A stretch of 64,000 nucleotides of DNA, taken from assembly GCF_002161065.1 (NCBI RefSeq), contig NZ_NFLV01000004.1:124001-188000 (forward strand). The letters run 5' to 3'. Under the pieces are notes generated by a model. That model ran no database searches. It was given only the letters and a program-made list of their open reading frames with translations, and had not been told where the DNA came from. This DNA comes from Eubacterium sp. An11. GTDB lineage: Bacteria > Bacillota > Clostridia > Lachnospirales > Lachnospiraceae. Shown piece by piece: positions 1,307-14,198 of this stretch. A program made the translations under genes and the position numbers. Each line of letters begins with the position of its first letter. Positions within the stretch are counted from its first letter, which is position 1.

Positions 1307-2323
1307 CTATCCGCGGTTTTTATTGAAATCCCGGCAGGCCTCAAAATACGCGTCAATGTTCTCTTTTGGAACCACCGGCGCCAGATCACATCCGGATGAC
1401 AGCACAAAATGCGGATATGGTTTCATATCTTCCAGCAGTTTCAGGGTCTGTTCCCGGATGGATTCCGGCGTGCCCATGAAAAACGCTGTGGACGGGTCGA
1501 TATTTCCAAATACCAGAATGTCCGGCGGAATCTGCGGAAGGATATCTCTCATATCCACAGAGTTTCCATAATGATGACCCTTACATCCGGTGCTGTACAT
1601 GGATTTCACAGAATCTTTTACCTGTCCGCAGTCATGCAAGATCAGGAAAAAGTAATCATCCTGGACTGCTTCCACCAGTTTTTTTACATATGTGGAGGAA
1701 AACTCATCCAGCTGGTCCGGAGACAGCAGTCCCGCTGTCGGTTCCGCCATAAATATTCCGTTGGCTCCTGCGGCCTTGTATTCTTTCGCCCGCGCGATCA
1801 GGAATTCCGTCGCTTTGTCCAGAAGAATCTTCATCGAATCCGGGTCCGTCATGGTCAGCATCAGCGCGTTGGATACCTCCATCAAATTGGCCGCCAGAGA
1901 GAACGGTCCCAGCATTCCTCCAAAAATCGGCCGGTCGGTGATCAGTTTCTGCGCTTCTTTCACCGCATCTGTAAAAACATCCACCCGGCCGCTGTGTACG
2001 TCAGGAACCTTCAGATTGCGGATATCTTCCGCCGTCTTTACCACATGTTTTACGATGGACGGCACCTGCTTGTCACTGAATTTTACTTTTCCACCAAAGG
2101 CTTCCGTATCCACCGTCAGATCCATTCCCGTGACCGCGGCGATGATGTCCGGATATTCTTCTGTCACCTTTTTCATGGTCTTCGCGATATTTTCCGGTGA
2201 GCTCACTGATTCCGTTACCGTAAAGCCCAGCTCCTGTACGCATGGGAAATATAATACCGGAAGATTTTTCACATCTTTTGACTCAATAATTTCTCTCGAC
2301 CATTTATCCATATTGATTCTCAT
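1307..2323 (-). CDS. Corrinoid-type methyltransferase of the uroporphyrinogen decarboxylase (MtaA/CmuA) family
   Basis: A 338-aa TIM-barrel protein. The zinc site typical of MtaA/MtbA-type methylcobamide methyltransferases is visible as HDCG (about residue 240) and a later cysteine in SSGCDL (about residue 310), i.e. the H-x-C-xn-C pattern, which separates this group from true HemE. It would move methyl groups to or from a corrinoid protein in anaerobic C1/demethylation metabolism; substrate unknown. Start: the ORF also has an ATG two codons upstream, but the AGGAGGA leaves proper spacing only to the ATG at 2323. Immediately upstream in the same direction lies the remnant of its reductive activator, so this gene has probably lost its native promoter. 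No corrinoid-binding protein is present in the window. Confidence 0.85.
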   Translation of the reverse strand: MRINMDKWSREIIESKDVKNLPVLYFPCVQELGFTVTESVSSPENIAKTMKKVTEEYPDIIAAVTGMDLTVDTEAFGGKVKFSDKQVPSIVKHVVKTAEDIRNLKVPDVHSGRVDVFTDAVKEAQKLITDRPIFGGMLGPFSLAANLMEVSNALMLTMTDPDSMKILLDKATEFLIARAKEYKAAGANGIFMAEPTAGLLSPDQLDEFSSTYVKKLVEAVQDDYFFLILHDCGQVKDSVKSMYSTGCKGHHYGNSVDMRDILPQIPPDILVFGNIDPSTAFFMGTPESIREQTLKLLEDMKPYPHFVLSSGCDLAPVVPKENIDAYFEACRDFNKNRG

Positions 2324-2383
2324 TGTCATTTCCTCCTGTTTTCTGTTTTATTTATACCAATGTTCACAAATTCATTGCAATGC

Positions 2384-3130
2384 TCAGAAATTCATTGCGA
2401 GCATATACTCTTCCTGAAAATCCATATTCACGGACAATTCCACGTGCTCCACCTGTTTTACCCAGACTTCCGCATTCCGGCGGCAGTCCCTGTTCAGGAG
2501 AGCCATGCATGCGCCGGTTCCCGCGGAATTTCCGATGGAGATGATCTTCTCCGGAGCCACAGACGGAAGCATCCTGATTTCCAGAGCACTGTTTTTATCA
2601 ATGTAATTGCCGAAGGCTCCGGCGATGAGCAGGCCATCCAGGGACGCCTCATCGATACCGGCGATTTTCATCAGCGTTTTCATCCCCGCCAGCATGGCTC
2701 CCTTGGTCAGCTGAATTTCCCGGACATCATTCTGGGTAAGGATGATTTCTTCATCCTCTTCTTTCCACACGGTAAATTCCATCCCTGTGTCAGTTTTTCT
2801 CAGACCGTCCGCCAGGGATTCCGGTATGCCAAGGGCCAGCGCCTCCTCCCGCTCAAGCATCCGTCCTTTATCATTGATCAGACCCGCCCGGCGCAGGGCC
2901 GCGATCAGATCTATGACGCCGGAACCGCAGATGCCCAGTGGTTTTTCCTGGTCGATCACCGAAATCTTCAGGTGCCCTTCCTCTATCCACACTTTCTCAA
3001 TGGCGCCGGGTGCAGCGCGCATTCCGCAGCGTATGCCGGCCCCCTCAAAAGCAGGTCCCGCAGCCGTGGAACACGCCAGCAGTTTTCCATCCCGGGCACA
3101 GACAACCTCCCCGTTGGTCCCGGTATCAAT
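2384..3130 (-). pseudogene. C-terminal fragment of a corrinoid-activating protein (RACo/RamA-like ASKHA ATPase)
   Basis: About 249 codons remain in frame. The fragment opens with IDTGTNGEVV followed by LLACSTAAGPAFEGAGIRCG, the highly conserved core of the C-terminal ASKHA (DUF4445) domain of reductive activators of corrinoid proteins, and continues with LGICGSGVIDL and LIAGAFGNYID. These proteins are normally about 600 aa with an N-terminal 2Fe-2S ferredoxin domain; everything before the IDTGTNG motif is missing and homology stops abruptly at about 3130, exactly where the divergent XRE reading frame begins. No start codon or RBS is found at the break; the first in-frame ATG is at 3022, inside the domain. 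It is therefore read as a truncated remnant. Its 3' end lies 60 bp before the methyltransferase start, consistent with a former operon. Confidence 0.85.
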
Positions 3131-3132
3131 TT

Positions 3133-3774
3133 TCCATCGGCGAACTGGCTGACCTGGTTCACAAGAGCAAGTCCACCCTTTCCAAATATGAGAACGGATT
3201 GATCACGATCGATATCCAGACCCTGGAAGATATCTGCTGCGCTCTCCATGTGGATATCCGGGAAATGTTTACCTACAAAAAACCGGAAGAACAATCCGCA
3301 CTCTTCGCGCACAACCGGATTTTTTCCAGAAATAAATTATATATCTATTATTATGACGGGAGAAAAAAGAGTATTGTCAAATCTTATATGACCATTCAGA
3401 ATAATAATTCACAAAATGTGGTGAGCTGCACTTTCTACATGGATATTCCCTCTTTTGAAGAATACGATCAGTGTGCGTTTTACTATATCGGAAAGATGGA
3501 TCCCTTTGATCTGGTCACCTACTGCACTTTGATCAATCAGGTCAATCCCATGGAACGACTTGGTATGTGTTTTTTGAATCCTTTTCATCACAATGTAAAA
3601 ACCTGGGGAATCATGTTCGGCATCAGCTACCGGCCCATCGCCCCTTTTGCCTTAAAATTCCTCCTGTCCACCGCTCCGCTGAACGAAAATGAACTTCTGG
3701 AAGAAAATCTCATGATCACCCAGGATGAAATCAAAATTATGAAACAGATGAATATGATGCTGTTAAATCAATAA
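3133..3774 (+). pseudogene. XRE-family regulator lacking its N-terminus
   Basis: From 3133 the plus strand reads SIGELADLVHKSKSTLSKYE, the recognition part of a Cro/C1-type HTH, followed by a roughly 160-aa C-terminal region of unknown function ending at 3774. The first helix and about 15 N-terminal residues that such regulators need are absent; the upstream in-frame sequence (the ORF is open back to an ATG at 2938) is merely the antisense of the activator fragment. No SD precedes a usable start. Its stop overlaps the end of sdaAA by 7 bp (convergent). Regulators of this type often sit divergent to corrinoid methyltransferase operons, so a single deletion removing both 5' ends and the shared promoter region explains the scar. 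Confidence 0.8.
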
Positions 3775-4652
3775 CCGTCCGGAGAACCTTCCTCCAGCAT
3801 CTCCCTGATATTTTTTCCTGTGGGCGTAACAGCCAGACCTCCTCTGGCCGTCTCCCTCAACTCTTCCGGAAGGGCTCTCCCCACCTGGCGCATGGCGTCA
3901 AAAACCTCATCTGCCGGAATCCGGCTTCTGATACCGGCAAGAACCATATCTGCCGATGTGAGGGCATTCACCGCTCCGATGACATTCCTCTTGATGCAGG
4001 GCACTTCCACCAGACCTGCCACCGGATCGCACACAAGCCCCAATAGTCCTTTCATAGCCAAAGCCGCTCCATGGGAAATCGCTTCTCCGTTTCCTCCCAT
4101 CAGATAAACGGCGGCTCCGGCCGCCATGGAAGAAGCTGCGCCAATCTCCGCCTGACACCCGCCGGCAGCTCCGGCCAGCGTCGCCTTCCTGGCGATCACC
4201 CCACCGATCCCTGCCGCCACAAACAGCGCCTCTACCATTTTTTCTTCCGGTATCTTTTTCTGTTCTTCCATGGTCAGAAGAACAGCGGAGAGGACTCCGC
4301 AGGAACCTGCCGTGGGAGCCGCCACGATTTTTCTCATGCAGGCGTTGGACTCGCCCATCTTCAGGGCCTTTTCCATGACACGGTTGATAAAATCTCCGCA
4401 GAGCAGTTCCCGGTTTTGCCGGGCCGCCGCCATTTTCTGTCCGTCTGCGCCGGCAAGACCGCTGTGGGAACGGAGAGAAGGATCATAGTCCGCATCGGCC
4501 TGCTTCATTTCCCGGTACATATTTCTCATCTGCTCAAACAACTTTTCCGGGGATATTTTCGTCTCCTCGCACTCCTCCCTGCGGATCAGTTCCCAGAAAG
4601 GAATCCCGGTTTCCTGTTCCAAATCTATAATCTCCTGTAATGACAGATACAT
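3768..4652 (-). CDS. sdaAA: L-serine dehydratase, iron-sulfur-dependent, alpha subunit
   Basis: A 294-aa protein matching the full length of the catalytic alpha subunit of two-subunit bacterial L-serine dehydratases, which deaminate L-serine to pyruvate and ammonia using an oxygen-labile 4Fe-4S cluster. Family signatures visible include APTAGSCGVLSAVL (about 135-148), IGGVIARKATLAGAAGGCQA and the conserved cysteine in DPVAGLVEVPCIKRN. It is the second gene of sdaAB-sdaAA, starting 1 nt after the sdaAB stop, so the two are translated together. The 3' end overlaps the convergent XRE remnant by 7 bp. Confidence 0.95.
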   Translation of the reverse strand: MYLSLQEIIDLEQETGIPFWELIRREECEETKISPEKLFEQMRNMYREMKQADADYDPSLRSHSGLAGADGQKMAAARQNRELLCGDFINRVMEKALKMGESNACMRKIVAAPTAGSCGVLSAVLLTMEEQKKIPEEKMVEALFVAAGIGGVIARKATLAGAAGGCQAEIGAASSMAAGAAVYLMGGNGEAISHGAALAMKGLLGLVCDPVAGLVEVPCIKRNVIGAVNALTSADMVLAGIRSRIPADEVFDAMRQVGRALPEELRETARGGLAVTPTGKNIREMLEEGSPDGY

Positions 4653-11421: not shown

Positions 11422-12996
11422 TCACTTCACGGAAAAATCATCCTGCGTCACCCTGCGAAGCCCGTCTTCCGTCAGCTGGTAGATCGTCTCACACACTTCC
11501 CCGATATATTTCCTGTCATGGGAAATACTGATGATCGCGCCGCCAAAGTCCCGGAGCACCTGCCGGATCACCGGGTTGGACAGCGGAGAAAAGTTGCGGG
11601 TGGGCTCGTCGAGGATCAGTACATTTGCTCCGGAAAGATTCATTTTCAGAAGAAATATTTTTGCTTTCTGACCGCCGGACAGCTCCCGAATGGGATGTTC
11701 CATCTCATCGGCAGTGTACTTCATGGAGCCAAGCCAGGTGCGGATTTTGGTGATTTCCCCTTTATGGCCGCTCTTTGACAGGTAATCCACCGGCGTCTTG
11801 TCAAGGTCCAGCAGTTCCTCATAATTTTGCGGCATATAAGCGGCCTTTATATCCTGCCGAGGCAGAAGCTCTGCGGCGATACGCTTTAATAGGGTCGTCT
11901 TGCCGACGCCGTTTCTGCCGATCATGCAGACTTTTTCCGGGCCGCGGACAAGGAGATGGATATTCCGGGCCAGCACACGGGACGGGGCGCATTCTGTACC
12001 TTTCCCCGCCGTCAGGGCATCCAGATGAAAATCCAGCACCGTCTTTCCTGCCGGCAGACGGATATCCGGCGAAAATCGCAGCAGGATCGCCTCCTCTTCT
12101 TCCGGCCGTTCCGTCATCTGGCCTGCCGCCTTATCAAAACGTTTCTCCATGGATTTGACCGCTTTCATTTTCTTTTTCAGCAGCCGTCCGCCGTGGGGAT
12201 CCTGGCGGGAGATGACATTCTGCTCATGTTCCACCCGCTGCATGATCCGGTTCAGCTTCTCCCGGCGGATCCGCTCCTGCCGCCGCTCATCAAGCGCCAT
12301 CTGCATCTGGTTGTCCATGACATTTTCCCGGTGGGAAAGATATTCCCGGTACGACATCCGCGCCACGGTGTGGCGGCTCACGGTCTTTCTGCGAATCTGT
12401 TCCAGGTGGATCACCACGTTGGCTGTCCGCTCGATGAGAGTCTCATCATGGGAAATGTAGAGCACCGGCTGCCGTGCCTCTGAAATAAATCGTTCCATCC
12501 ACTCCAGCGTGTCTATGTCAATATCGTTGGACGGCTCGTCCAGCAAAAATGCATCGGGTTTTCCCAAAAGTATCCTTGCCATCTGCGCTTTGACCTTCTC
12601 GCCGCCGGACAAGGTGTACATTTTCTGCTCCCCGTAATAAAAATCTGCCGGCAGCCTCAGCTCCTTTGCCAGCCTGCCCAGTTCTCCCGGATCCTGCAGA
12701 AAAAATTCTTCTTTCTCACAGAAAAACTCGTAAATCGTCCGCCCCTTTTCTTCCTCGGGAAGCTCCTGGGGCAGATAACCGATTCTGACGCCGCCGGTGA
12801 TGCGCTCCCCCTCCGCTTCCACATAATCCTCCACCAGAGCCGGATTTACCAGCCATTTCAGGAGCGTGGACTTTCCGTTGCCCTCTTCCCCGATGACGAC
12901 CGCCTTATCGCCCGGGTTCAGCGCAAAACTGAAATCATCAAGAATCGTCCGAAGATCTTTTTTATGCATCAAATGCAGGTTCTTTACCTGTATCAT
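11422..12996 (-). CDS. ABC-F family ATPase, candidate ribosome-protection factor
   Basis: A 524-aa soluble protein with two ABC domains and no membrane segment. Domain 1: Walker A GEEGNGKST, signature LSGGEKVKAQMARILL, Walker B DAFLLDEPSNDID. Linker about 190-300 is highly charged, as expected for the P-site tRNA interaction motif. Domain 2: Walker A GRNGVGKTT, signature LSGGQKAKIFLL, Walker B VLILDEPTRNFSPL. ABC-F proteins act on the ribosome, and many confer resistance to macrolides, lincosamides, pleuromutilins or streptogramins. The 350-nt leader with uORFs and terminator is what inducible ARE-type ABC-F genes have, supporting an antibiotic-response role. Start ATG after GGAGGGA. Exact drug range cannot be inferred. 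Confidence 0.88.
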   Translation of the reverse strand: MIQVKNLHLMHKKDLRTILDDFSFALNPGDKAVVIGEEGNGKSTLLKWLVNPALVEDYVEAEGERITGGVRIGYLPQELPEEEKGRTIYEFFCEKEEFFLQDPGELGRLAKELRLPADFYYGEQKMYTLSGGEKVKAQMARILLGKPDAFLLDEPSNDIDIDTLEWMERFISEARQPVLYISHDETLIERTANVVIHLEQIRRKTVSRHTVARMSYREYLSHRENVMDNQMQMALDERRQERIRREKLNRIMQRVEHEQNVISRQDPHGGRLLKKKMKAVKSMEKRFDKAAGQMTERPEEEEAILLRFSPDIRLPAGKTVLDFHLDALTAGKGTECAPSRVLARNIHLLVRGPEKVCMIGRNGVGKTTLLKRIAAELLPRQDIKAAYMPQNYEELLDLDKTPVDYLSKSGHKGEITKIRTWLGSMKYTADEMEHPIRELSGGQKAKIFLLKMNLSGANVLILDEPTRNFSPLSNPVIRQVLRDFGGAIISISHDRKYIGEVCETIYQLTEDGLRRVTQDDFSVK

Positions 12997-13008
12997 GATA
13001 ATCCCTCC

Positions 13009-13227
13009 TCACTGTTTTCCCTCTACAGTGAGCGAACGTTGCTTTGCGCCGGTGTTCAGCCTGCCTGAAAGACTGTTTTTTCCGGAAATCCAGCGAAAGT
13101 TCAAAAAAAAGTTCCCGGGAAAGAAAAACGGCTGTCCGTTACCGGACAGCCGATGAATGCACCAAAAGAAACCTGATGCAAAAAACACAGGTTTCACGAA
13201 AATGCCATTCCTCTTATCCGGTATCAC
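13009..13227 (-). CDS. Leader ORF (72 codons) overlapping the ABC-F attenuator
   Basis: Start GTG at 13227, 8 nt after GAGGGG, giving MIPDKRNGIFVKPVFFASGF at the N-terminus. The frame stays open through hairpin 13168-13195 and the intrinsic terminator 13129-13152 and ends with TGA at 13009-13011, directly before the ABC-F Shine-Dalgarno. The N-terminal part is hydrophobic and phenylalanine-rich, resembling stalling leader peptides; the part after the terminator is compositionally unremarkable. I infer a regulatory peptide whose translation or drug-induced stalling affects terminator folding and possibly reinitiation at the ABC-F start, not an independent protein. Confidence 0.55.
   Translation of the reverse strand: MIPDKRNGIFVKPVFFASGFFWCIHRLSGNGQPFFFPGNFFLNFRWISGKNSLSGRLNTGAKQRSLTVEGKQ
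13124..13152 (-). terminator. Intrinsic terminator inside the ABC-F leader (attenuator)
   Basis: Perfect 10-bp stem CGGCTGTCCG / CGGACAGCCG with a 4-nt loop, followed on the minus strand by five T residues. It sits about 130 nt before the ABC-F start and inside the leader ORF, with no gene ending there, so it must attenuate ABC-F transcription. Confidence 0.85.
13168..13195 (-). promoter_or_regulatory. Second leader hairpin upstream of the attenuator
   Basis: 8-bp perfect arms GAAACCTG / CAGGTTTC with a 12-nt loop, followed by TTTT on the minus strand. It overlies the codons for KPVFFASGF of the leader ORF, where a stalled ribosome would disrupt it. Confidence 0.55.
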
Positions 13228-13284
13228 AAACAAATCCCCTCACTGTAAACGGGACTATTATCGTCTGTCTGTTACCAAATAAGA

Positions 13285-13320
13285 TTATCTGAACATTTCC
13301 TCACCTACACATGAAAACAT
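13285..13320 (-). CDS. First leader micro-ORF (11 codons)
   Basis: ATG at 13320 preceded by AGAAAGG; encodes MFSCVGEEMFR then TAA. It is the first ORF in the ABC-F leader, about 20 nt after the predicted transcription start. Its start codon lies in the perfect palindrome CACATGAAAACATGTG, which could hide it. Short leader peptides in this position are common for ribosome-targeting antibiotic resistance genes. Confidence 0.4.
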   Translation of the reverse strand: MFSCVGEEMFR

Positions 13321-13346
13321 GTGCCTTTCTTTTTATTTCGGTCATA

Positions 13347-13375
13347 ACTATAACACATCTTTGGAGAAGATGCAA
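13347..13375 (-). promoter_or_regulatory. Promoter of the ABC-F leader transcript
   Basis: Minus-strand TTGCAT (13370-13375), 17-nt spacer, TATAGT (13347-13352). The predicted transcript has a leader of about 340 nt before the ABC-F ATG; the 13.0-13.4 kb interval is fully occupied by this leader. Confidence 0.65.
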
Positions 13376-13392
13376 GCAAATAAAATGAATTA

Positions 13393-13821
13393 TTATTCTT
13401 CTAATCTTTTTATTATATCCAAAGTAAATTCACGCGTTAATTTTACTGCATTCGCAGCATCTGCGATTTCTTCCTCTCCCGCAATAAAACTATCATTCCC
13501 CGGATATCGTGTAGTAAAGTAAAAACCATCTATTATTTTCATTGCATTGGAAACTGAAGAAGGAATTTGAATCTGCATCTCATCTTTCATGTAACGCATA
13601 ATCTTTTTTAAGCTGTGCGCATGCAAAACAGCCTTTTTATTCATTTCTTCCTCCACGCTGCATGGCTGTGCGTATTCTGAAATAATGTGTTTTAAATACC
13701 GTTCACATATATTCTGCCCCAATGCAGCCATGGAAGTACCAAACACCTCATGATCAAAATTATACATAAAAAATTTATAATCATTTTCCGCAAAGTCTAA
13801 ATATGTGCTTCGTTTTTCCAA
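13393..13821 (-). CDS. HEPN-domain protein (partner of the MNT protein)
   Basis: A 142-aa all-helical protein of the HEPN superfamily, found paired with minimal nucleotidyltransferases. Visible: N-terminal YLDFAENDYKFFMYNFD, AALGQNICERYLKHII, and the C-terminal FYFTTRYPGND typical of the DNA_binding/HEPN (PF05168-like) group. The RX4HXY RNase motif of HepT toxins is not evident, so an RNase function is doubtful. The start overlaps the end of the MNT gene by 25 bp, so the pair is co-translated. Probably a toxin-antitoxin or stress module; which member is the toxin cannot be settled here. Confidence 0.8.
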   Translation of the reverse strand: MEKRSTYLDFAENDYKFFMYNFDHEVFGTSMAALGQNICERYLKHIISEYAQPCSVEEEMNKKAVLHAHSLKKIMRYMKDEMQIQIPSSVSNAMKIIDGFYFTTRYPGNDSFIAGEEEIADAANAVKLTREFTLDIIKRLEE

Positions 13822-14198
13822 ACATCAATCCCTTCCCTTCTGATGTCTTTATAATATAAATCCTCATTTTTTTCCCAATCATTACCTACTACAATATTCA
13901 AATCTATATCAGGTAAATCATCTTCCAGTGACGTAAGTTCCGATTTAAGCATATAAAGATAGGCTCTGTGTGTTTGTATTTCATCTGTATCTTTTAATAC
14001 CAGCAATAAATCTATATCACTGCTATAGGTCTGTTCTCCTCTTGCCGCACTTCCGTACAATATCAGTTTTTCAACAAATGGCGCTATCCTGGATTGTTTT
14101 ATGATTGAACAAGCTTTTTGTACAGAACGAATGCTGCGTTCCTTATTGAATTTTCGAACCTCTTTTGAAGATTTTGATGCAATAATCACATTCATCAT
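13797..14198 (-). CDS. Minimal nucleotidyltransferase (MNT), MntA-like
   Basis: A 133-aa protein with the polymerase-beta-type motif GSAARGEQTYSSDID (GSx10DxD), the active site of MNT proteins such as MntA, which modifies its HEPN partner by AMP transfer. The third acidic residue is probably the D of DIDLNIVV (about residue 104). Start is uncertain: two ATGs in tandem follow GGGG closely at 14198. First gene of the pair with the HEPN protein; base composition is more AT-rich than the flanking housekeeping genes, consistent with acquisition. Confidence 0.85.
   Translation of the reverse strand: MMNVIIASKSSKEVRKFNKERSIRSVQKACSIIKQSRIAPFVEKLILYGSAARGEQTYSSDIDLLLVLKDTDEIQTHRAYLYMLKSELTSLEDDLPDIDLNIVVGNDWEKNEDLYYKDIRREGIDVWKNEAHI

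What the first reader, a model, noticed from the sequence alone, without database searches (positions are those of the whole stretch)
12997..13375. ABC-F attenuator leader with an ORF that crosses the terminator and ends at the ABC-F ribosome binding site
One promoter, an 11-codon micro-ORF, a second leader ORF (GTG, good SD), a hairpin over its phenylalanine-rich codons, a perfect 10-bp intrinsic terminator within the ORF, and a stop codon immediately before the ABC-F SD. This combines ribosome-stalling attenuation with possible translational coupling. Drug-inducible leaders are known for ARE ABC-F genes, but a leader ORF spanning the terminator and ending at the SD is an unusual arrangement and suggests sensing of ribosome stalling by translation through the terminator.
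Basis: partly seen in the sequence, partly recalled or inferred. Interest (0 to 1): 0.78.

Follow-up and report, generated by a model that had tools for sequence, protein, structure and literature searches.

The report
Drug-sensing RNA switch before ABC-F gene

Summary
The features described are all in the sequence (minus strand). Such a uORF, M-x-(x)-R/K-stop, occurs in 43 of 79 upstream regions of related ABC-F genes (shuffles: mean 0.4, maximum 2). A covariance model from 21 leaders of other genera finds the window's leader at E=5.8e-10, from the first hairpin to the terminator, with strong covariation. Helix, terminator and a predicted antiterminator give the layout shown experimentally for Bacillus VmlR. 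So this is most likely a VmlR/CplR-type ribosome-sensing transcription attenuator, of an RNA family with no Rfam match, found in 45 of 397 sampled genomes of its family, before at least two kinds of ABC-F gene (a third in another survey). The GTG ORF across the terminator has 72 codons here and 46 in the two nearest relatives, no sign of coding selection (of 4 variable codons 3 are nonsynonymous), and no counterpart at that place in the other leaders read; it is probably incidental. No expression data: drug induction is inferred.

The parts
13347..13375 (-). promoter-like site TTGCAT-17-TATAGT with TGT before the -10
   Evidence: read; -10 and start of -35 kept in L015/L016; not listed by the consensus scan
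13307..13324 (-).
   Evidence: helix 1 of the model: 3 of 4 pairs change on both sides in A5; fold
13285..13306 (-). uORF with its SD: AGGTGA (13306-13301), ATG TTC AGA TAA = MFR* (13296-13285)
   Evidence: conserved M-x-(x)-R/K-stop with GGTG at near-fixed spacing
13212..13284 (-). anti-antiterminator (AAT): UCUUAUUUGGUA (13284-13273) with UACCGGAUAAGA (13223-13212)
   Evidence: CM alignment; helix 6 and helix 9 covary (73.8% and 76.8% of cells paired)
13121..13152 (-). intrinsic terminator CGGCUGUCCG GUAA CGGACAGCCG + U tract
   Evidence: helix 8 and helix 11 covary
13140..13223 (-). predicted antiterminator (AT): UACCGGA (13223-13217) with UCCGGUA (13146-13140) of the terminator 5' arm and loop
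   Evidence: covariation in the seed alignment inconclusive
13236..13246 (-). ACAGUGAGGGG, near-copy of the ABC-F SD region (ACAGUGAGGAGGG) and SD of the GTG ORF; can pair with CUCACUGU of SL4
   Evidence: sequence; pairing predicted in the induced fold of the window only, not of L015/L016
13008..13032 (-). SL4-like hairpin CUCACUGU/ACAGUGAG abutting the ABC-F SD
   Evidence: kept in L015 and L016
13009..13227 (-). GTG ORF of 72 codons through the terminator, probably not a gene
13034..13109 (-). extra stretch between terminator and SL4 (the leader is 78-79 nt longer here than in L015/L016 from uORF to ABC-F); limits approximate; single copy in the genome
11422..12996 (-). ABC-F protein, 524 aa, ribosomal-protection-like but below the cut-off of every NCBIfam family shown

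Best explanation
The region is a ribosome-mediated transcription attenuator of the VmlR/CplR kind. In drug-free cells a ribosome quickly reads the three-codon uORF MFR*, the AAT helix directly behind the stop codon forms, the AT cannot form, and RNA polymerase stops at the terminator, whose hairpin begins 132 nt after the uORF. When a drug that traps ribosomes within the first codons (lincosamide, pleuromutilin and streptogramin A are the likeliest) holds a ribosome on the uORF, the ribosome covers the 5' arm of the AAT; the freed arm UACCGGA pairs with the terminator's 5' arm, polymerase reads through, and ABC-F is made. A hairpin at the ABC-F SD may add a second, translational check. Supported by sequence comparison: uORF, AAT, SL2-like hairpin, terminator. 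Supported by pairing energies only: AT. Inferred from relatives and from VmlR/CplR: stalling, the drugs, read-through, the protein's function.
For: uORF: a GGTG-N4-7-start-1 to 4 codons-stop motif with R/K last in 43 of 79 upstream regions (only exact duplicates removed, the window included) against a mean of 0.4 (maximum 2) in 50 shuffle rounds; any last residue 49 of 79 against 4.1 (maximum 9). Covariance model R1 from 21 leaders, none of the window's genus: 27 pairs change on both sides, shuffled mean 15.0, 0 of 500 shuffles reach it; slid controls 7-16. On 46 further leaders (the window among them; one, L115, 99.5% like a seed row): covariation 0.587 against 0.245 shuffled and at most 0.115 slid, with the caveat that these rows were aligned to the model. 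Window leader: 54 bits, E=5.8e-10, full length, 13326-13120 minus, and no other place in its genome below E 0.037. Own-partner pairing is stronger than swapped-partner pairing for AAT (-14.9 against -10.3) and AT (-14.0 against -9.4 kcal/mol), 0 of 5000 permutations as low for either (45 of 56 leaders used). Blocking the uORF footprint raises upstream pairing of the terminator 5' arm from 0.48 to 0.74 on average, in 40 of 45; in the window from 0.06 to 0.68. The same mechanism is shown experimentally for vmlR (uORF MIN) and, with MR[I/M], cplR (passages of PMC9226507 and PMC10201436). The same leader stands before Lsa-like and Vga/Msr-like ABC-F genes: L118, L121, L139, L144 (590-617 bits to the Lsa family, cut-off 750) and L159, all five over the ribosomal-protection equivalog cut-off.
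Against: No expression, Term-seq or drug data for this organism. With the complete terminator present, the predicted equilibrium keeps the terminator in 42 of 45 leaders even with the uORF blocked, so switching would have to be kinetic. A footprint shifted by +30 nt works nearly as well as the real one (mean 0.72; -30 and +45 do not: 0.50, 0.54). AT covariation within the seed alignment is not above shuffles; those columns hardly vary. Own AT pairing was no better than the control mean in 4 of 45 leaders and own AAT pairing in 2. The window's ABC-F falls below every NCBIfam cut-off shown, so that it is a resistance protein is inferred. The SD release predicted for the window is not predicted for L015 or L016. 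28 of 84 upstream regions gave no uORF by pattern.
Confidence: 0.85

Rival explanations
1. The GTG ORF is a real second leader peptide: ribosomes read it through the terminator sequence, melt the terminator and reinitiate at the ABC-F SD.
For: Frame open for 72 codons with a GTG, a plausible SD and a stop on the ABC-F SD; in L015/L016 the same start and stop are kept in frame in spite of indels. Shuffles reach 70 codons in only 3.4% of cases.
Against: Seen in one genus only; length 72 against 46 codons; frame differs after the terminator; in the shared first 33 codons 4 codons vary, 3 nonsynonymously (pairwise: 2 nonsynonymous + 1 synonymous, 2 + 1, 2 + 0). ORFs of 40 codons or more that stop within 35 nt of the ABC-F start exist in 7 of the other 53 leaders at various places, so such frames are not rare. 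Its SD region is a near-copy of the ABC-F SD region, and its hairpins are conserved RNA elements.
Confidence: 0.08
2. The uORF senses supply of Arg-tRNA (AGA codon just before the stop), an amino-acid attenuator, not drugs.
For: Of 49 regions with the strict motif, 37 end in Arg and 6 in Lys, 35 with codon AGA (where a region had several matches an R/K one was preferred).
Against: Downstream genes are mostly ABC-F, not arginine genes; in the seed leaders AGAUAA is also the foot of the AAT helix, so the codon may be held by pairing (helix 2); a single codon is a poor starvation sensor (general knowledge).
Confidence: 0.05
3. A protein-binding or metabolite-binding attenuator that happens to contain a micro-ORF.
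For: Weak sub-threshold PyrR-site match (19.4 bits, gathering 54, E 4.9); elaborate conserved structure.
Against: No Rfam match over threshold on the leader in window 12800-13600 or in 13 relative loci; the uORF with its SD is among the best conserved elements.
Confidence: 0.04

Closest known systems
Bacillus subtilis vmlR leader (uORF MIN; PMC9226507, passages read)
   Same: three-codon uORF, AAT (SL-1), SL-2 hairpin, terminator SL-3, SD-sequestering SL-4, AT that competes with AAT and terminator, ABC-F downstream
   Different: uORF consensus here M-x-(x)-R/K; a separate P0 hairpin before the SD; terminator to ABC-F distance 132 nt here. R1 found no match outside the class in 398 genomes drawn from the phylum; the vmlR leader itself was not compared
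Clostridioides difficile cplR leader (uORF MRI, consensus MR[I/M]; PMC10201436, passages read)
   Same: three-codon uORF in a 5' hairpin, terminator, ABC-F, transcriptional plus translational attenuation
   Different: in cplR the terminator stem itself holds the ABC-F SD; here terminator and SD hairpin are separate
Listeria lmo0919 and lsaA (uORF MAGN) leaders (named in PMC10201436 passages; the rest recalled)
   Same: short uORF and attenuation before a PLSA-resistance ABC-F
   Different: other uORF sequences; not compared at sequence level here
Lsa-like and Vga/Msr-like ABC-F genes behind the same leader (L118, L121, L139, L144; L159)
   Same: same leader model, uORFs such as MIIR* and MRIR*
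   Different: ABC-F proteins only 22-24% identical to the window's

Membership tests
VmlR/CplR-type ribosome-mediated transcription attenuator | minimal uORF with SD, conserved among relatives | tested here: met
VmlR/CplR-type ribosome-mediated transcription attenuator | AAT helix at the uORF, supported by covariation | tested here: met
VmlR/CplR-type ribosome-mediated transcription attenuator | intrinsic terminator between uORF and ABC-F | tested here: met
VmlR/CplR-type ribosome-mediated transcription attenuator | AT pairing AAT 3' arm with terminator 5' arm | tested here: inconclusive
   partner-swap test positive, covariation in the seed not above shuffles
VmlR/CplR-type ribosome-mediated transcription attenuator | antibiotic-induced stalling on the uORF and read-through | not testable with these tools
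   needs Term-seq, toeprint, reporter
leader family R1 (defined here) | match to a model built without this genus | tested here: met
   54 bits, E=5.8e-10
Rfam families (release 15) | score over the gathering threshold | tested here: not met
   window 12800-13600 and 13 relative loci, where only a tRNA far from the leader matched
named antibiotic-resistance ABC-F families (NCBIfam) | score over the family cut-off | tested here: not met
   window ABC-F: best NF000355 265.9 bits, cut-off 380; named families far below theirs (best 25 shown)
translated leader gene (GTG ORF) | conserved frame and excess of synonymous change | tested here: not met
   only three sequences and four variable codons

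The most novel reading that the evidence does not exclude
The leader is a portable, horizontally moving ribosome-state sensor of Lachnospiraceae: one RNA module with an M-x-(x)-Arg/Lys-stop mini-gene that has been recruited to at least three ABC-F lineages (the window's type, Lsa-like, Vga/Msr-like) and now and then to other genes (a DJ-1-like gene, a kinase-like gene before an ABC-F, a glycosylase and ABC-2 exporter cluster), and in which the basic last residue before the stop, not only early drug block, sets what the ribosome senses.
Probability: 0.3. Interest if true: 0.65.

Novelty: new member of a known kind. Interest (0 to 1): 0.45.

Why it matters
It predicts inducible, normally silent resistance in a good part of gut Lachnospiraceae through one RNA switch that Rfam does not list, and gives a model that can find further genes under the same control. 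It also warns that long open frames in attenuator leaders can arise from RNA mimicry (SD copies, hairpin arms) without being genes.

Tried and rejected
Rejected: the GTG ORF as a leader gene; the 11-codon ORF (only in the window, L015 and L016 of 56 leaders); a known Rfam RNA; the extra stretch between terminator and SL4 as a repeat (single copy in the genome). ORFs of 40 codons or more that begin after the uORF and stop within 35 nt of the ABC-F start occur in 10 of 56 leaders: the window, L015, L016 and seven others (L030, L042, L048, L062, L070, L071, L094) at other places (one search shows only the two longest frames per leader).

Led nowhere or weak: RNAalifold on the 34-leader MAFFT alignment found only the terminator, probably because the AAT arms were misaligned; AT covariation in the seed; three weak R1 places elsewhere in the genome (E 0.037, 1.2, 3.9) have no ABC-F behind them. 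An attempt to get a Pfam name for the L141 gene by coordinates failed; its name comes from NCBIfam.

28 of 84 upstream regions gave no uORF by pattern (two have under 35 nt upstream); the pattern asked for a last residue among R, K, N, Q, I, V in its main part, so last-residue counts are given from the unfiltered motif. 'Non-redundant' means that three exact duplicates were removed (82 to 79); near-identical leaders such as the window, L015 and L016 remain. In some searches I used 45 of 56 leaders (6 redundant and 5 with doubtful terminators left out; the terminators of L030, L033 and L069 were set by hand). In one search, 49 of 87 sources have an R1 match at E up to 0.001, 21 of them seed rows; L010/L015 and L011/L016 are the same loci from two collections (equal contig lengths). 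The genome surveys overlap in some genomes, and at that size used stricter filters that lose weak matches.

Literature: the searches listed no paper that by title or abstract start deals with this leader in Lachnospiraceae; I saw listings, and passages of PMC9226507, PMC10201436 and PMC10219788 only. Supplements could not be read.

Full report
What is there. The ABC-F gene (11422-12996, minus strand, 524 aa) has two ABC domain matches and is ribosomal-protection-like, best NCBIfam match NF000355 at 265.9 bits against a cut-off of 380; the best match among solved structures is a chain labelled ExpZ, 8buu, and the VmlR2 paper gives 8BUU as its own model. Upstream lie a promoter-like site, a small hairpin (P0), an AGGTGA Shine-Dalgarno sequence and ATG TTC AGA TAA, then a 12-bp helix with arms 13284-13273 and 13223-13212, a second hairpin (13195-13168), the 10-bp terminator (13152-13129), and a hairpin at the ABC-F SD.

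Relatives. A search of 61 genomes gave 6 with a close ABC-F, the window's own included; two others of the same genus are 88% identical. In these two the ilvA-type gene is followed directly by the leader, and the leader is 78-79 nt shorter from uORF to ABC-F. More distant relatives carry MFN*, MYN* and MMN*. A collection scan gave 80 loci (best 80 of 498) and IMG/VR three. In 79 upstream regions of at least 450 nt (exact duplicates removed, the window included), a GGTG-start-1 to 4 codons-stop motif occurs in 49, in 43 with Arg or Lys last; dinucleotide shuffles give 4.1 and 0.4 on average. Of the 49, 37 end in Arg and 6 in Lys, 35 with codon AGA. Frequent peptides are MINR, MFR, MIIR, MRK, MYNR, MYRR.

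RNA family. RNAalifold on 21 leaders, none from the window's genus, gave P0, AAT with an inner hairpin, an SL-2-like hairpin and the terminator. The pairs covary: 27 change on both sides against 15.0 shuffled, slid controls 7-16. The covariance model R1 finds the window leader over its full length at 54 bits, E=5.8e-10; the next place in the 3.9-Mb genome has E 0.037. On 46 leaders outside the seed (one nearly equal to a seed row) pairs form in 88.6% of cells against 68.2% shuffled and at most 45.3% slid, though these rows were fitted to the model. Rfam shows no match over threshold on the leader in the window stretch or in 13 relative loci.

Switch. In partner-swap tests on 45 of 56 leaders both AAT and AT pair better with their own partner than with those of other leaders (0 of 5000 permutations as low for either; own below control mean in 43 and 41 of 45, rows). 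Blocking the uORF ribosome footprint in RNA cut off before the terminator's 3' arm raises pairing of the terminator's 5' arm with upstream RNA from 0.48 to 0.74 on average, with an increase in 40 of 45; in the window from 0.06 to 0.68. Controls: -30 nt 0.50, +45 nt 0.54, but +30 nt 0.72, so the test shows that covering the AAT 5' region suffices, not that only the uORF footprint does. With the whole terminator in place it stays the favoured fold in 42 of 45, so the switch must act during transcription. AT covariation in the seed is not above shuffles. The layout is that of vmlR: a three-codon uORF in the AAT, a pause hairpin, a terminator, an SD-sequestering hairpin, with uORF translation shown to be needed for induction (passages); cplR, VmlR2 and LsaA have uORFs MR[I/M], MK[L/Q] and MAGN.

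The GTG ORF. It has 72 codons in the window and 46 from the same GTG in L015 and L016; the frame runs alike for 33 codons, then differs, and returns to the same stop. In the shared 33 codons four codons vary, three nonsynonymously; this is few data, but it gives no sign of coding selection. A frame of 70 codons or more up to that TGA occurs in 3.4% of shuffles. Seven of the other 53 leaders have some ORF of 40 codons or more that stops near the ABC-F start, at various places, so such frames arise readily. The features that made it look like a gene have other reasons: its hairpin and terminator are conserved RNA elements; its SD (ACAGUGAGGGG, 13246-13236) is a near-copy of the ABC-F SD region (ACAGUGAGGAGGG), and in the window's predicted induced fold it pairs with the strand that otherwise holds the latter, raising the unpaired fraction of the ABC-F SD from 0.20 to 0.63; the TGA is part of that same repeated sequence. 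This SD release is not predicted in L015 and L016 (0.34 to 0.34 and 0.36 to 0.34), so I hold it only as a possibility.

Spread and downstream genes. R1 finds the leader in 45 of 397 genomes of the family (43 of 334 genera; the window's included), in 11 of 391 drawn from the class (2 outside the family) and 4 of 398 from the phylum (1 outside the family, none outside the class); the three samples overlap. Of the 47 places of the family survey one is the window; of the other 46, 23 have the window's type of ABC-F next (51-64% identity; in L119 only a 183-aa piece), 18 an ABC-F-like protein at 21-24% identity, 3 run into a contig end or an IS-type transposase, and 2 have other genes, one of them behind a weak leader match. 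Four of the 18 were typed (L118, L121, L139, L144): all are Lsa-like at 590-617 bits, below that family's cut-off of 750 but over the ribosomal-protection equivalog cut-off. L159 from the class survey is of a third kind, over the same equivalog cut-off and nearest to Vga and Msr. L141 has a DJ-1/PfpI-like gene 17 nt behind an 84-bit leader match.

Verdict. The leader is a new member of a known kind (VmlR/CplR-type attenuators), in a sequence family without an Rfam match and, as far as the listings show, not described for Lachnospiraceae. The claim of translation through the terminator is not supported.

Noticed in passing
window 13393-14198, minus strand: A HEPN-domain ORF (13393-13821, PF05168 22.8 bits, cut-off 22) and an MNT-like nucleotidyltransferase (13797-14198, below the MntA cut-off) lie between the ilvA-type gene and the leader; in the two nearest relatives that gene is followed directly by the leader, so the pair, like a type VII toxin-antitoxin module, looks inserted here.
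   Followed up: partly
L051, L052, L053 (about 2138-4645): Leader plus ABC-F are 99.6-99.8% identical over 2.5 kb or more between Eubacterium ramulus, Blautia schinkii and Butyribacter intestini records, pointing to recent transfer between genera.
   Followed up: partly
L100-L102 (IMG/VR contigs): Three contigs filed as viral carry leader and ABC-F (59% identical), uORF MIIR*.
   Followed up: no
L141 1768-1580 minus: An 84-bit copy of the leader, uORF MIF*, stands 17 nt before a DJ-1/PfpI-like gene (below the family cut-offs) instead of an ABC-F.
   Followed up: partly
L164 288-502 and 2756-2973: Two leader copies 2.5 kb apart in one genome; the second precedes a uracil-DNA-glycosylase-superfamily gene (PF03167), two ABC-2 permeases (PF06182) and an ABC ATPase.
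   Followed up: partly
L018 1341-1587: In Acetatifactor muris the leader (39 bits) precedes a P-loop, kinase-like gene (NF005250 127 bits, cut-off 270; 'kinase-like' is my reading), and the ABC-F follows it.
   Followed up: partly
L165 87-278: Leader (113.5 bits) near a contig end with an IS-type transposase-like ORF on the other strand right behind it; the label is by eye.
   Followed up: no
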